From Xanthomonas sp. AM6 (GTDB taxonomy: Bacteria > Pseudomonadota > Gammaproteobacteria > Xanthomonadales > Xanthomonadaceae): DNA of 64,000 nucleotides. The stretch lies in the NCBI RefSeq assembly GCF_025665335.1, contig NZ_CP106869.1, forward strand, positions 4,118,501 to 4,182,500. The letters are read 5' to 3'. The position numbers and the translations under genes were made by a program. Shown here one piece after another: positions 30,808 to 42,034 of this stretch. Every line of letters begins with the position of its first letter. Position 1 is the stretch's first letter. The notes beneath the pieces are model-generated. The model worked only from the letters and a program-made list of their open reading frames with translations, was not told where the DNA came from and made no database searches.

Positions 30808-32079
30808 ATGATCCGCGATACCTCTGCCCAGGACCAGGTTCTCGCCCGCCCCCGCTCCGCCGCCGCGTGGCGCCGCTGGTTCTGGCCGGCGCTGGTCGGC
30901 CTGGCGGTGCTGCTCGGCATCGCCTTCGCCGCGCGCGGCTGGATCGCCGGCAGCCGCTCGTTCGACGCGCAACGCGTGCGCATCGCCACGGTCAGCCGCG
31001 GCGACCTGGTCCGCGACATCTCCGCCGACGGGCGCCTGATCGCCGCCAACAGCCCCACCCTGTACGCGATCTCCGGCGGCACCGTGAGCCTGAAGGTGGT
31101 CGCCGGCGACGTGGTCAAGCAGGGCCAGGAACTGGCCGAGATCGACAGCCCGGAACTGCGCAGCAAGCTTGCCCAGGAAGAGGCCACGCTGGCCGGCCTG
31201 GAGGCCGAGGCCGGCCGCGCCGACCTGGATGCGGTGCTGGCGCGCGCCAATGCCAGCAAGCTGGTCGACCAGGCGCAGATCGAGCGGCAGGCGGCCAGCC
31301 GCGACCTGGAGCGCTACCAGCGCGGCTACGACGGCGGCGCGGTACCGGCGGTGGAACTGGCCAAGGCGCAGGACTCGCTGAAGAAGGCCGACATCGCGAT
31401 GAGCCATGCGCAGAAGGACTCCGGCCTGCAGACCCAGGGGGCGGGCCTGGACGCGCGCAACAAGCGCCTGCTCGCCGAGCGCCAGCGCGCGGTGGTGACC
31501 GAGGTGAAGCGGCAGGTGGACCTGCTCACGCTGCGCTCGCCGTTCGACGGCCAGGTCGGCCAGGTGCAGGTGTCGCAGCACACCAACGTGGCCGCCAACG
31601 CGCCGGTGCTGAGCGTGGTCGACCTGTCCAAGTTCGAACTGGAGATCAAGGTGCCGGAGAGCTTCGCCCGCGACCTGGCGATCGGCATGCCGGCGCAGCT
31701 GACCAGCGGTGCCGGCGAACCGTTCGCCGGCGCGATCTCGGCGGTATCGCCGGAAGTGGTCAACGGCGAGGTCAACGCGCGCATCCGCTTCACCGACAAG
31801 CAGCCGCCGGGCCTGCGCCAGAGCCAGCGCATGAGCGCGCGGGTGCTGCTGGACACCCGCCGCAACGTGCTCAAGGTCGAGCGCGGCCCGTTCGTCGAAC
31901 AGTCCGGCGGCCGCTACGCCTACGTGATGGACGGCAACTCCGCGATCCGCCGCCCGGTGGAACTGGGCGTCACCAGCCTCGGCGAGGTCGAGGTGCGCTC
32001 GGGCCTGCAGCCCGGCGACCGCGTCGTGGTCTCCGGCAGCGACCTGTTCGGCGATGCGCCGCAGGTGACAGTGCATTGA
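30808..32079 (+). CDS. Periplasmic adaptor (HlyD/MFP family) of an ABC exporter
   Basis: This 423-residue membrane-fusion protein is anchored by one helix (FWPALVGLAVLLGIAFAARG, ~25-46). The order is: barrel-sandwich/lipoyl half (GGTVSLKVVAGDVVKQGQEL), a coiled-coil hairpin (~120-220, QEEATLAGLEAEAGR to KRQVDLLTL), the second lipoyl half (LRSPFDGQVGQVQVSQHTNV) and a beta-barrel (LEIKVPESFARDLAIGMPAQ). MacA-like adaptors link a MacB-type permease to an outer-membrane factor, but no such factor is encoded here. It is the first gene after the sigma-54 promoter and begins the 9-gene transport cluster. Confidence 0.92.
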   Translation: MIRDTSAQDQVLARPRSAAAWRRWFWPALVGLAVLLGIAFAARGWIAGSRSFDAQRVRIATVSRGDLVRDISADGRLIAANSPTLYAISGGTVSLKVVAGDVVKQGQELAEIDSPELRSKLAQEEATLAGLEAEAGRADLDAVLARANASKLVDQAQIERQAASRDLERYQRGYDGGAVPAVELAKAQDSLKKADIAMSHAQKDSGLQTQGAGLDARNKRLLAERQRAVVTEVKRQVDLLTLRSPFDGQVGQVQVSQHTNVAANAPVLSVVDLSKFELEIKVPESFARDLAIGMPAQLTSGAGEPFAGAISAVSPEVVNGEVNARIRFTDKQPPGLRQSQRMSARVLLDTRRNVLKVERGPFVEQSGGRYAYVMDGNSAIRRPVELGVTSLGEVEVRSGLQPGDRVVVSGSDLFGDAPQVTVH

Positions 32080-32082
32080 AGC

Positions 32083-32113
32083 CGGGATTGGGGGGTCGGG
32101 AGTGGGGATTGGG
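32083..32113 (+). repeat. GGGATTN heptamer block between adaptor and ATPase genes
   Basis: Several degenerate GGGATTG/GGGAGTG units in tandem, of the same kind as in the atp operon spacers. Here only one orientation is present. Confidence 0.6.
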
Positions 32114-32236
32114 AAGAGCAGGAGCGAAGTCCCGGTTCATCCTCGCCGATCCATGTCTCCGTACCGAATCCTGATCTGATTCCCCTCCATCGCAGCGGCT
32201 GCCCCACTGCAGTTAACCACCAACAAGGAACCCGTC

Positions 32237-39611: not shown

Positions 39612-39612
39612 C

Positions 39613-40845
39613 ATGAACCTGCCGATCCGGCCCATCCTCTCCAGCCTGCAGCACCACCGCCTCACCGCCGCGCTGCTGACGCTGCAGGTCGCGCTGACCT
39701 GCGCCTTCGTCGCCAACGCGGTGTTCCTGATCGGCGGGCGGATCGAGCGGCTGCGCACCCCGACCGGCCTGCCCGAGGACGAACTCGCGCTGATCTCGGT
39801 CCGTGGCCTGCAGGGCGGCGACAATGCGCAGGCCCAGCAGCAGGCCGATCTGATGGCGCTGCGCGGCATTCCCGGGGTCAAGGCGGCAGCCGCGGTCGAC
39901 CAGACCCTGCCGCTGACCGGCGGTTCCCACGACTATGGCGACTGTGCCGACCAGCAAGCGCTGGAACGCGCGAGCGCGCAGCGGTCGATGGAGGTTTCCG
40001 GTTGTATCCAGGCCACCCATTACTCCGGCTCGCCCGGCTTCGTGCAGGCCATGGGCGCGCGCCTGATCGCCGGCCGCGACTTCCATGCCGACGAATACGC
40101 CGCCACCTCCCCGAGTGCGGTGATCGTCACCCGCGCGTTGGCGCAGCAGCTGTGGCCAGGCCAGGCGGCCGTCGGCAAAACGCTCTACGGCAACGGCCAG
40201 ACCACCGTCGTCGGCGTCGTCGATGACCTGCTGCGACCGACCCTGCGCAGCGCAGCGGCGGATCGCCTGGTCGCCCTGTCGCCGGAACTTCCCTCGAGCA
40301 GCCAGACCCAGTATCTGCTGCGTAGCGCACCGCAGGACCGCGATCGCGTGCTGGCCGCAGCGTCCGCCGTGCTGGCCAAGGCCGGCCCGCTGCGGCTGAT
40401 CCCGAGCGAAGGGCGGCGCAGTTTCGCGCAAGTGCGGCAGCGCTACTTCCAGCGCGACGCCACCATGATCGGGCTACTGCTCGCGGCGACCACGGGCTTG
40501 CTGTTCGTCACCGCCCTGGGCATCGGCGGACTGGCCAGCTTCTGGGTGCAGCAGCGCACGCGCCAGATCGGCATCCGCCGCGCCATCGGCGCGACCCGCC
40601 GCGACATCCTGGGCTACTTCCAGGCCGAGAACCTGTTGATCGTGGGCAGCGGCAGCGTGCTGGGCATGGCGCTGGCGCTGCTGCTCAACCAGGCGCTGAT
40701 GCACCACTACGATCTGCCGCGCCTGCCGCTGGGCTACCTGCCGGCCGCGGCCGTGGCCTTGCTCGCGCTCGGCCAGCTCGCGGTGTTGTGGCCGGCGCAA
40801 CGCGCCGCCGCAGTGCCGCCGGCGGTGGCCACGCGCAGCGCCTGA
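39613..40845 (+). CDS. MacB/FtsX-type ABC permease, B-type, copy 3
   Basis: This 410-residue B-type paralogue starts MNLPIRPILSSLQHHRLTAA. Unlike copies 1 and 2 it carries a periplasmic cysteine pair (Cys111 in DYGDCADQQ and Cys131 in EVSGCIQATHYS). The rest follows the B pattern: MGARLIAGRDFHADEY, LWPGQAAVGKTLYGNG, QQRTRQIGIRRAIGATRRDI, end PPAVATRSA. It forms the third pair with the cysteine-free A-type copy 3. Confidence 0.92.
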   Translation: MNLPIRPILSSLQHHRLTAALLTLQVALTCAFVANAVFLIGGRIERLRTPTGLPEDELALISVRGLQGGDNAQAQQQADLMALRGIPGVKAAAAVDQTLPLTGGSHDYGDCADQQALERASAQRSMEVSGCIQATHYSGSPGFVQAMGARLIAGRDFHADEYAATSPSAVIVTRALAQQLWPGQAAVGKTLYGNGQTTVVGVVDDLLRPTLRSAAADRLVALSPELPSSSQTQYLLRSAPQDRDRVLAAASAVLAKAGPLRLIPSEGRRSFAQVRQRYFQRDATMIGLLLAATTGLLFVTALGIGGLASFWVQQRTRQIGIRRAIGATRRDILGYFQAENLLIVGSGSVLGMALALLLNQALMHHYDLPRLPLGYLPAAAVALLALGQLAVLWPAQRAAAVPPAVATRSA

Positions 40846-40861
40846 GCGAGGCGAGGCGGTC

Positions 40862-42034
40862 ATGGATCGGTTCCTGGTCTCGCTGCGCAGGCACAAGCTG
40901 CTGGCGGCGCTGATCGTGCTGCAGATGGCGGTCAGCTATCCGGTGCTGCTCGCCCTGGGCGCGTTGGCCAGCCAGGCGCATGCGCGGATGCATGCCGCCA
41001 GCGGCATCGGCGATGACGCGCAGCTGCTGACGCTGCGCCTCAACGGTCGCGTCTCCGCCGCGGCGGCGCGGCGCGAGGCGGCGGCCGTGCGTGCGCTCCC
41101 CGGCGTGCTGCACGTGGCCGCGATCAATCAGCTGCCGTTCGGACCGGAGCGATGGGGCACCCTGCTGGGCCCACGCGCCGACGGCAGCGGCGGGCAGTTC
41201 CTGGTCACCACCTACCTCGGCGATCCCGGCCTGCTGCAGGCGATGGGCCTGCGCCTGCAGCGCGGCCGCGACTTCGCCAGCGACGAGTATCGCAACCTCG
41301 CATCGCCCAACGCGCTGCATCTGGCGCAGCGGGTGATCCTGACCCGGACGCTGGCGGCGCGGATGTTCCCGGGTCGCGACGCGCTGGGGCAGGCGGTGTA
41401 TCTGGGCGGCGCGCCGCCGGCGCGGGTGGTCGGCATCGTCGAGCGGTTGCGCGCGCCGGGCGATGGCGACGGGGACAGCGTCATCCTGCCGTTGCGCTTG
41501 CCCGATGACGGCAACGCGCTCTACGTGCTGCGGGTCGCGCCCGGCGATCCGGCGCGGGTCCGCGCGCGGCTGGCGGCGGATGCGGAACGGATCGCGCCGG
41601 GGCGGCTGCACGAGGTGAGCAGCGCCGGCGAACTGCGCTTGCGGTACCAGCGCGTGCATCGCCATCGGCTGATGCTGCTTGCCGCGGGCGCTGCGCTGTG
41701 GCTGTTCGGCACGCTGGCGACGGTCTACGCCATCAGCGACGCCATGGTCGGCCAACGCTCCCGGCAGATCGCGCTGCGGCGTGCGCTGGGCGCGCGCGCG
41801 GCGCAGATCCGCGGCCACCTGCGCCGCGAAAACCTGTTGCTGTGCGGCCTGGGCATCGCCATGGGCGCAGGGATCGCCGCACTGCTGCGGCGCGCCTGGC
41901 TGGATGCCGCGGCGCTGTCGCTGCCGCCGCTGTCGCCGCTGGCCACCGCCTTGCTGTTGCTCGGCGCCGGCTGGCTGGCGATGCGCGGCCCGGCCCGGCG
42001 CGCGGCGCAGCTGTCGCCTGCGGCCTGTCGGTGA
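40862..42034 (+). CDS. MacB/FtsX-type ABC permease, divergent unpaired B-type
   Basis: This 390-residue protein is recognisably B-type (MDRFLVSLRRHKLLAALIVL, GLRLQRGRDFASDEY, MFPGRDALGQAVYLGG) but has drifted. The loop is QRSRQIALRRALGARAAQIR, and the conserved PPAVATRSA end is replaced by QLSPAACR. The periplasmic domain is shorter. It lies 16 bp after copy 3 and has no A-type partner, so it may be a decaying copy, a homodimer or an alternative partner for an A-type subunit. Confidence 0.88.
   Translation: MDRFLVSLRRHKLLAALIVLQMAVSYPVLLALGALASQAHARMHAASGIGDDAQLLTLRLNGRVSAAAARREAAAVRALPGVLHVAAINQLPFGPERWGTLLGPRADGSGGQFLVTTYLGDPGLLQAMGLRLQRGRDFASDEYRNLASPNALHLAQRVILTRTLAARMFPGRDALGQAVYLGGAPPARVVGIVERLRAPGDGDGDSVILPLRLPDDGNALYVLRVAPGDPARVRARLAADAERIAPGRLHEVSSAGELRLRYQRVHRHRLMLLAAGAALWLFGTLATVYAISDAMVGQRSRQIALRRALGARAAQIRGHLRRENLLLCGLGIAMGAGIAALLRRAWLDAAALSLPPLSPLATALLLLGAGWLAMRGPARRAAQLSPAACR

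What the first reader, a model, noticed from the sequence alone, without database searches (positions are those of the whole stretch)
30808..42034. One ATPase and one adaptor with seven tandem MacB/FtsX permeases
The cluster encodes a single LolD/MacB-type ATPase and a single HlyD adaptor, but seven permeases in strict order A-B-A-B-A-B-B. A-type genes share an N-terminal GYY(F/C)KLALxSFRRN signature (copies 1, 2), and B-type copies 1-3 share the (P)IRPILSxL start and the PPAVATRSA end. MacB systems normally have one fused gene, and Lol-type systems one or two permeases. The pattern suggests repeated duplication of an A/B heterodimer with divergence of the periplasmic domains, so one ATPase could drive several pumps of different specificity, or subunits could mix. 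I know of no described system with this stoichiometry, though I cannot search.
Basis: partly seen in the sequence, partly recalled or inferred. Interest (0 to 1): 0.82.

Follow-up and report, generated by a model that had tools for sequence, protein, structure and literature searches.

The report
One motor, many peptide-pump permeases
In Xanthomonas and its relatives one ATP-burning motor gene is followed by a row of paired membrane-pump genes that grows and shrinks between species (seven genes here, up to thirteen elsewhere) under one shared switch, which suggests that a single motor powers many pumps, probably for different peptides.

Summary
Window 30808-42034 holds one adaptor, one ATPase and seven MacB/FtsX permeases, A-B-A-B-A-B-B. 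A matches the N half and B the C half of the ADOP duplicated permease (TIGR03434), so each pair is a split ADOP. In 90 of 90 related loci with adaptor and regulator exactly one ATPase lies between them, with 2 to 13 permeases. A and B trees largely agree: six pair types plus a B-only type, in a mostly kept order, with different types missing in different species. A sigma54 promoter stands upstream in 90 of 93 loci and a palindrome in 91 of 93; its 14-base core occurs once in this genome. Kin pairs without an ATPase lie elsewhere in seven genomes of the genus; in 7 of the 8 such loci examined the neighbours suggest peptide synthesis or export, with evidence of uneven strength. In this genome the neighbour is a class III lanthipeptide synthetase. 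Best reading: cognate A/B heterodimers for different peptides share one ATPase and adaptor. Sharing is inferred: the coupling loop is equally conserved in two pairs that have their own ATPase.

The parts
30687..30704 (.). 18-base palindrome, probable binding site of the operon's own regulator
   Evidence: GTCC-N0-4-GGAC within 180 bases upstream of the promoter in 91 of 93 loci against 45 of 1860 dinucleotide shuffles; 14-base core found once in this genome
30755..30770 (+). sigma54 promoter TGGCACG-N4-GTGCT
   Evidence: 11 of 12 consensus positions; 10 to 12 of 12 in 90 of 93 loci
30808..32079 (+). periplasmic adaptor (membrane fusion protein)
   Evidence: TIGR01730 138.8 bits, cut-off 94.9; HlyD domains
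32237..32962 (+). the single ATPase, 241 aa
   Evidence: best NCBIfam match DarD 261.2 bits (cut-off 375), LolD 223.5 (cut-off 307.75)
33045..34343 (+). permease A1, type I, ADOP N half
   Evidence: TIGR03434 positions 5-401; type from trees
34405..35631 (+). permease B1, type I, ADOP C half
   Evidence: TIGR03434 positions 411-801
35681..36982 (+). permease A2, type II
   Evidence: TIGR03434 positions 6-401
37020..38246 (+). permease B2, type II
   Evidence: TIGR03434 positions 411-801
38283..39611 (+). permease A3, type III
   Evidence: TIGR03434 positions 5-400
39613..40845 (+). permease B3, type III
   Evidence: TIGR03434 positions 410-801
40862..42034 (+). permease B4, B-only type (omega)
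   Evidence: TIGR03434 positions 411-797; MacB-type fold predicted with pLDDT 89.7
42086..43528 (+). NtrC-type response regulator (sigma54 activator); by my reading translation may start at 42191
   Evidence: receiver, Sigma54_activat and Fis-type HTH domains
43525..44880 (+). histidine kinase; two N-terminal membrane helices with about five residues between them (read by eye)
   Evidence: HATPase_c; N-termini of 11 loci printed

Best explanation
An inducible, multi-specific exporter of peptides (or clearer of peptides from the periplasm). Each adjacent A and B gene makes a heterodimeric MacB-type permease, a split ADOP. Different pairs take up different amphipathic peptides from the periplasm or outer leaflet. 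All dock on dimers of the one cytoplasmic ATPase, which drives the stalk movement, and on the one adaptor, which leads to a TolC-type channel encoded elsewhere. The kinase has almost no periplasmic part and senses envelope stress or the state of the permeases; the NtrC-type regulator binds the upstream palindrome and fires the sigma54 promoter, so the set is made together. Shown by sequence: gene content, pairing, one ATPase per locus, promoter and palindrome; fold by prediction. Inferred: shared ATPase in the complex, peptide substrates, kinase input, TolC. Kin pairs without an ATPase in biosynthetic surroundings probably borrow the same ATPase.
For: One ATPase between adaptor and regulator in 90 of 90 loci with 2-13 permeases. 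Label-free A/B partner agreement 2094 of 2538, 868 expected. A and B are the halves of ADOP. sigma54 site 90 of 93, palindrome 91 of 93 loci, core unique in the genome. Seven genomes of the genus with ATPase-less kin pairs all hold the array ATPase. Neighbours of kin pairs: LanKC over its curated cut-off, NRPS/PKS, C39-peptidase exporter, FAAL-like ligase with ACP. Nearest solved fold of both models is 5xu1 of S. pneumoniae, whose operon is tied to peptide resistance in a review (PMC5985334, passages).
Against: No experiment. Coupling-loop conservation is as high in pairs with their own ATPase (L111, L127), so it does not show sharing. Peptide substrates rest on neighbours of kin pairs, without a random-locus control; some neighbour matches are weak (34 bits, cut-off 40) and one pair (L138) has none among three genes scanned. 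Some kin pairs do carry their own ATPase (L111, L114, L123, L127, L139). Sigma54 sites are lacking at 7 of 8 kin loci tested, so those pairs are not switched on together with the array.
Confidence: 0.6

Rival explanations
1. Sensor array: only the core pair (type I) is an energised pump; the other pairs and B4 mainly detect different peptides and report to the kinase, as BceAB does to BceS.
For: Kinase with almost no periplasmic part in 11 N-termini read; dedicated regulator, palindrome core unique; B4 always stands last before the regulator; type I is the most widespread type.
Against: All types keep the coupling loop. Two arrays of the genus (L097, L131) lack type I. Kin pairs outside arrays have no such kinase beside them, except weak or distant matches.
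Confidence: 0.13
2. Combinatorial subunits: A and B of different types mix, so three As and four Bs give up to twelve pumps.
For: Extra Bs without an A (16 omega, 3 type I); loop and tail conserved across types.
Against: A and B of a pair are inherited together and kept adjacent, as expected for cognate dimers.
Confidence: 0.1
3. Mostly redundant copies: dosage or drift, with one or two pairs doing the work.
For: Copy number varies from 4 to 13 within the genus; B4 evolves fast (dN/dS 0.38-0.61).
Against: Types are kept with open frames in a mostly fixed order; dN/dS of types I to III is 0.12-0.53.
Confidence: 0.08
4. Not export but envelope work, as LolCDE (lipoproteins) or FtsEX (wall hydrolases), with several client proteins.
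For: LolCDE and FtsEX structures are also among the nearest folds.
Against: An HlyD-type adaptor is present, which LolCDE and FtsEX lack by established knowledge; kin pairs sit by peptide-synthesis genes.
Confidence: 0.07

Closest known systems
ADOP family duplicated permease (TIGR03434)
   Same: A and B align to its N and C halves; also occurs in tandem as fused genes in related orders (L116-L118)
   Different: Here split into two genes, in longer arrays, next to an ATPase; scores far below the family cut-off
MacAB-TolC
   Same: Permease fold, separate adaptor
   Different: MacB fuses ATPase and permease and works as a homodimer; here separate ATPase and A/B pairs
LolCDE
   Same: Separate ATPase, heterodimeric permeases
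   Different: No adaptor in LolCDE; one pair only; NCBIfam LolD and LolCE cut-offs not reached
Darobactin exporter DarBCD
   Same: DarD is the best NCBIfam match of the ATPase; peptide export
   Different: One long permease; DarC, DarD and DarB cut-offs not reached
BceAB-BceRS resistance modules
   Same: Type VII permease with its own two-component system; kinase with tiny outer loop
   Different: BceB has ten helices and there is no adaptor; here a sigma54 activator and many four-helix permeases
Shared-ATPase importers (MsmK) and ECF group II importers
   Same: One ATPase for several permeases, shown by deletion for MsmK (PMC8579813, passages); ECF sharing is recalled
   Different: Importers; permeases at separate loci; not type VII exporters

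Membership tests
ADOP (TIGR03434) | N and C permease halves of the family | tested here: met
   A: positions 5-401; B: 410-801 of 803
ADOP (TIGR03434) | one polypeptide scoring over the curated cut-off of 622.3 bits | tested here: not met
   seven separate genes, 132-194 bits each
ADOP (TIGR03434) | no ATPase gene beside it ('orphan'; definition recalled) | tested here: not met
   ATPase at 32237-32962; the kin pair at G000:C1:2358131-2360654 does lack one
MacB | ATPase fused to the permease; equivalog cut-off 966 bits | tested here: not met
   separate ATPase; permeases 30-65 bits to MacB, ATPase 222.5
MacB | four-helix permease with MacB periplasmic fold | tested here: met
LolCDE | LolD and LolCE equivalogs, no adaptor | tested here: not met
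   LolD 223.5 of 307.75 bits; lolCE up to 25.2 of 362.45; adaptor present
Darobactin exporter | DarB, DarC, DarD equivalogs | tested here: not met
   DarD 261.2 of 375, DarC 53.9 of 450, DarB 20.3 of 700 bits
BceAB-type module | kinase without an outer sensor domain beside a type VII permease | tested here: inconclusive
   short loop read by eye in 11 N-termini; no topology tool or experiment
Shared-ATPase ABC systems | fewer ATPases than permease pairs | tested here: met
   one ATPase for up to six pairs plus one B; ATPase-less kin pairs
Shared-ATPase ABC systems | the ATPase physically drives several permeases | not testable with these tools
   needs genetics or biochemistry

The most novel reading that the evidence does not exclude
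A one-motor, many-pumps exporter: a shared energising module (ATPase, adaptor, sigma54 two-component switch) serves an evolving library of permease heterodimers, each for another peptide, and lends its ATPase to motor-less pairs that sit with peptide-antibiotic gene clusters elsewhere in the genome. It would be the exporter counterpart of ATPase sharing among importers.
Probability: 0.5. Interest if true: 0.8.

Novelty: new variant of a known kind. Interest (0 to 1): 0.62.

Why it matters
MacB-type exporters are described as one permease dimer with its own ATPase. If one ATPase and adaptor serve several A/B heterodimers, specificity can evolve by adding permease pairs alone, and motor-less permease pairs near natural-product genes would have an explanation. 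The natural series of loci with one to six pairs of the same types makes this directly testable by deletion. The conserved sigma54 promoter and palindrome give a ready reporter for the inducing signal. Annotation as 'ABC transporter permease' hides all this.

Tried and rejected
Coupling-loop conservation as proof of a shared ATPase: rejected after the control, in which pairs with their own ATPase (L111, L127) are as close to the array types as these are to each other; three more remote systems with their own ATPase (L114, L123, L120) bring the mean of that group down to 62% and 64%.

Co-regulation of distant kin pairs by the same switch: eight kin loci tested; only L113 has a possible sigma54 site (10 of 12; 3 of 200 shuffles reach it). 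The palindrome core occurs once in this genome.

B4 as the rest of a pair that lost its A: not supported. It is a B-only type, last in 9 of 19 arrays of the genus, and its coupling motif QIALRRALGARAAQI is the same in all nine orthologues aligned. At E 1e-75 it is found in 5 of 247 genomes of the family, all in the genus. Its link to the lone Bs of Pseudoxanthomonas and Stenotrophomonas panacihumi rests on long branches and is unsure.

An ATPase remnant beside the distant pair of this genome: none found; tblastn gives only the ATPase part of the type I exporter and one chance-level match (E 0.24).

Literature: ten searches of an open-licence library (listings only unless said) gave no description of such an array; most subscription papers are not in it. 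PMC12316311 (passages) reports sigma54 enrichment of COG0577 permeases in gamma-Proteobacteria and calls it the first such link. PMC3174227 (passages) gave nothing on this family. PMC11573002 was seen only in a listing.

One search stopped at its last print; the identities and the B4 alignment printed before that are used, the per-segment invariance was not obtained.
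Full report
WHAT IS THERE. Window 30808-44880 is one gene cluster on the plus strand: adaptor, ATPase, A1 B1 A2 B2 A3 B3 B4, NtrC-type regulator, kinase. All seven permeases carry the MacB periplasmic domain and the FtsX domain over the Pfam cut-offs. In NCBIfam the best match of each is ADOP, TIGR03434: A proteins match positions 5-401 and B proteins 410-801 of 803, all below the family's cut-off for a whole protein.

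THE REST OF THE GENOME. FtsX domains were found at 17 places in the window's genome; seven are the array. The five ATPase genes most like the array's each lie within 1 kb of another FtsX match: a fused ADOP system at C1:3589743-3592163 with its own adaptor, ATPase, regulator and kinase (L120), a pair near 4.57 Mb, one long gene near 3.85 Mb, and single genes near 2.885 and 0.617 Mb. One split A/B pair at 2358131-2360654 has no such ATPase nearby. So nine split-ADOP permeases in this genome have one matching ATPase.

RELATIVES. Of the 103 loci then used, 90 hold adaptor and regulator, and in all 90 exactly one ATPase lies between them. The other 13 are cut-off loci or pairs outside arrays. L065 has one more, weak ATPase match before the adaptor. 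Permeases per locus: 2 in 51 loci, 3 in 7, 4 in 10, 5 in 2, 6 in 2, 7 in 2, 8 in 5, 9 in 3, 10 in 5, 11 in 2, 13 in 1. Pseudoxanthomonas winnipegensis (L073), cut off in that set, has 12 by my reading of its coordinates. These loci are best matches and lean towards close kin.

DISTRIBUTION. Of 20 genomes held for the window's genus (three of them are the named Xanthomonas loci above), 19 have the array ATPase at E 1e-110; G023 has not, and its best ADOP match is 54 bits. The 19 arrays hold 4 to 13 permeases. In 247 genomes drawn from the family, 214 have a B1-like gene at E 1e-60. By my count of its rows, of the 201 with a match outside the genus 174 have one, 20 have two and 7 have three or more; of 13 drawn from the genus 12 have three or more. 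At most seven candidates per genome were scored, so high counts are lower bounds. Across the class 3 of 143 genomes match at 1e-50. One pair is the common state; long arrays are mainly a feature of this genus, with some Stenotrophomonas and a few others.

TREES. I built separate trees of 98 of 164 A and 111 of 180 B sequences, loci chosen by me (short searches, SH-aLRT support only). I call the pair types I to VI and the B-only type omega. The window has I, II, III and omega. Types IV, V and VI are strongly supported in both trees, as is III. Type II joins Xanthomonas and Stenotrophomonas copies in the A tree (97), whereas in the B tree they are two clades whose relation is open. Type I is the core type; single-pair loci fall near it, not all in one supported clade. 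The usual order in the genus is VI-IV-V-I-II-III-omega with different types missing; L097 and L131 have IV-VI, and in Stenotrophomonas VI comes last. IV and VI occur in Xanthomonas and Stenotrophomonas, IV and V in P. winnipegensis: the duplications are older than these genera, or genes moved between them. Without labels, over 28 multi-pair loci, the nearest A and nearest B in another array are partners in 2094 of 2538 comparisons, 868 expected; order of reciprocal best A matches is kept in 392 of 450. With labels 176 of 182 pairs have A and B of one type, and 111 of 112 in 32 multi-pair loci, against 35.6 after permutation within loci; about 30 of these pairs were the labelled references and agree by construction. 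Lone genes: 16 omega Bs, 3 extra type-I Bs, 1 A in a cut-off locus. Omega and some other branches are long and their place is unsure.

SWITCH. TGGCACG-N4-GTGCT at 30755-30770 fits a sigma54 promoter, and the regulator has a sigma54-activator domain. The site scores 10 to 12 of 12 in 90 of 93 loci. About 60 bases further up lies a palindrome: GTGTCCGCGGACAC in 51 of 93 loci, GTCC-N0-4-GGAC in 91 of 93, against 45 of 1860 dinucleotide shuffles. In this genome the 14-base core occurs only here. The simplest reading is a dedicated activator site. The kinase has two membrane helices with about five residues between them (11 N-termini, read by eye), so it can hardly bind a ligand in the periplasm by itself.

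KIN OUTSIDE THE ARRAYS. In this genome the distant split pair follows a type I ABC exporter and a class III lanthipeptide synthetase over its curated cut-off (654.8 vs 575 bits). In S. maltophilia D457 a kin pair stands with a type I-like exporter gene (a weak ATPase-model match), LanC-like remains beside an IS21 element, and an ATPase 65-67% identical to the array's. In G003 the A reading frame starts 34 bases after a 3263-residue NRPS/PKS. In G002 the pair follows a protein with a below-cut-off match to a peptide beta-hydroxylase domain (34 vs 40 bits) and a methyltransferase; G011 and G027 have look-alikes by their first residues, not scanned further except one without Pfam match. In G010 a C39-peptidase exporter and its HlyD partner lie about 2.7 kb away, with transposase genes also near. 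In G025 the neighbours are a FAAL-like ligase (below cut-offs), an ACP, a penicillin amidase and an exporter, and tblastn finds only 50 residues of an array-like ATPase before A, while G007 and G022 have a kin pair with a full ATPase. A second pair in G027 (L138) has no such neighbour among three genes scanned. That makes 7 of 8 ATPase-less pairs examined, with evidence of uneven strength and no random-locus control. The seven genomes with ATPase-less pairs (G000, G002, G003, G010, G011, G025, G027) all carry the array ATPase. Lists of ADOP matches were cut, so there may be more pairs.

EXCHANGE. In Xanthomonas prunicola (L018) A and B are 98% and 96% identical to array-bearing L108 but 75-83% to five single-pair xanthomonads, while adaptor, regulator and kinase are 93-97% identical to the latter; the ATPase is 90-95% to both and decides nothing. 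The permease pair has been replaced from the other clade, so cassettes move.

HOW IT PROBABLY WORKS. Shown: pairing, one motor per locus, promoter, palindrome; by prediction, the fold. From knowledge of the MacB family: uptake from the periplasm and a stalk driven by the ATPase (PMC5985334, passages). Inferred: several A/B heterodimers share one pool of ATPase and adaptor, each for other peptides; B4 may form a homodimer, stand in for another B, or link the permeases to the kinase. ATPase sharing has been shown by deletion for sugar importers (MsmK; PMC8579813, passages). I found no report of it for this class of exporter in the ten searches named in Tried and rejected.

VERDICT. A real, conserved and variable array, not chance: split ADOP/MacB-type permeases in multi-pair operons with one ATPase, a new variant of a known kind. 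The shared motor is the best reading and is untested.

Noticed in passing
L120 (G000:C1:3584001-3598000): The same genome has a second system of the same layout with one fused ADOP permease: adaptor, ATPase, ADOP, regulator, kinase.
   Followed up: partly
L132 (G000:C1:2349001-2369000), 9125-16156: Class III lanthipeptide synthetase, type I exporter and a split ADOP pair without its own ATPase in the window's genome.
   Followed up: partly
L116 and L118 (genomes of the same order): Adaptor and ATPase followed by three fused ADOP genes in tandem and then a second ATPase; L117 has four fused ADOPs.
   Followed up: no
L018 (Xanthomonas prunicola): Permease pair of the array-bearing clade inside a cluster whose adaptor, regulator and kinase belong to the single-pair clade.
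   Followed up: partly
L021, L101, L130: Extra type-I B right after the type-I pair: B genes can duplicate without their A.
   Followed up: no
L140 10831-10980: Only a 50-residue ATPase match before the kin A gene, while kin loci L111 and L127 have a full ATPase.
   Followed up: no
L139 13786-17099: LanC-like remains of a lanthipeptide synthetase beside an IS21 element in S. maltophilia D457.
   Followed up: no
window 28685-30733 (-) and 46237-47682 (-): Flanking genes look like glmS (divergent from the array) and glmU, by domains and recalled sequence.
   Followed up: no
window 45160-46128 (-): 322-aa open frame with no Pfam match at 1e-5.
   Followed up: no
window 32080-32236: 157-base gap with a G-rich stretch between adaptor and ATPase, much wider than the gaps between permease genes.
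   Followed up: no
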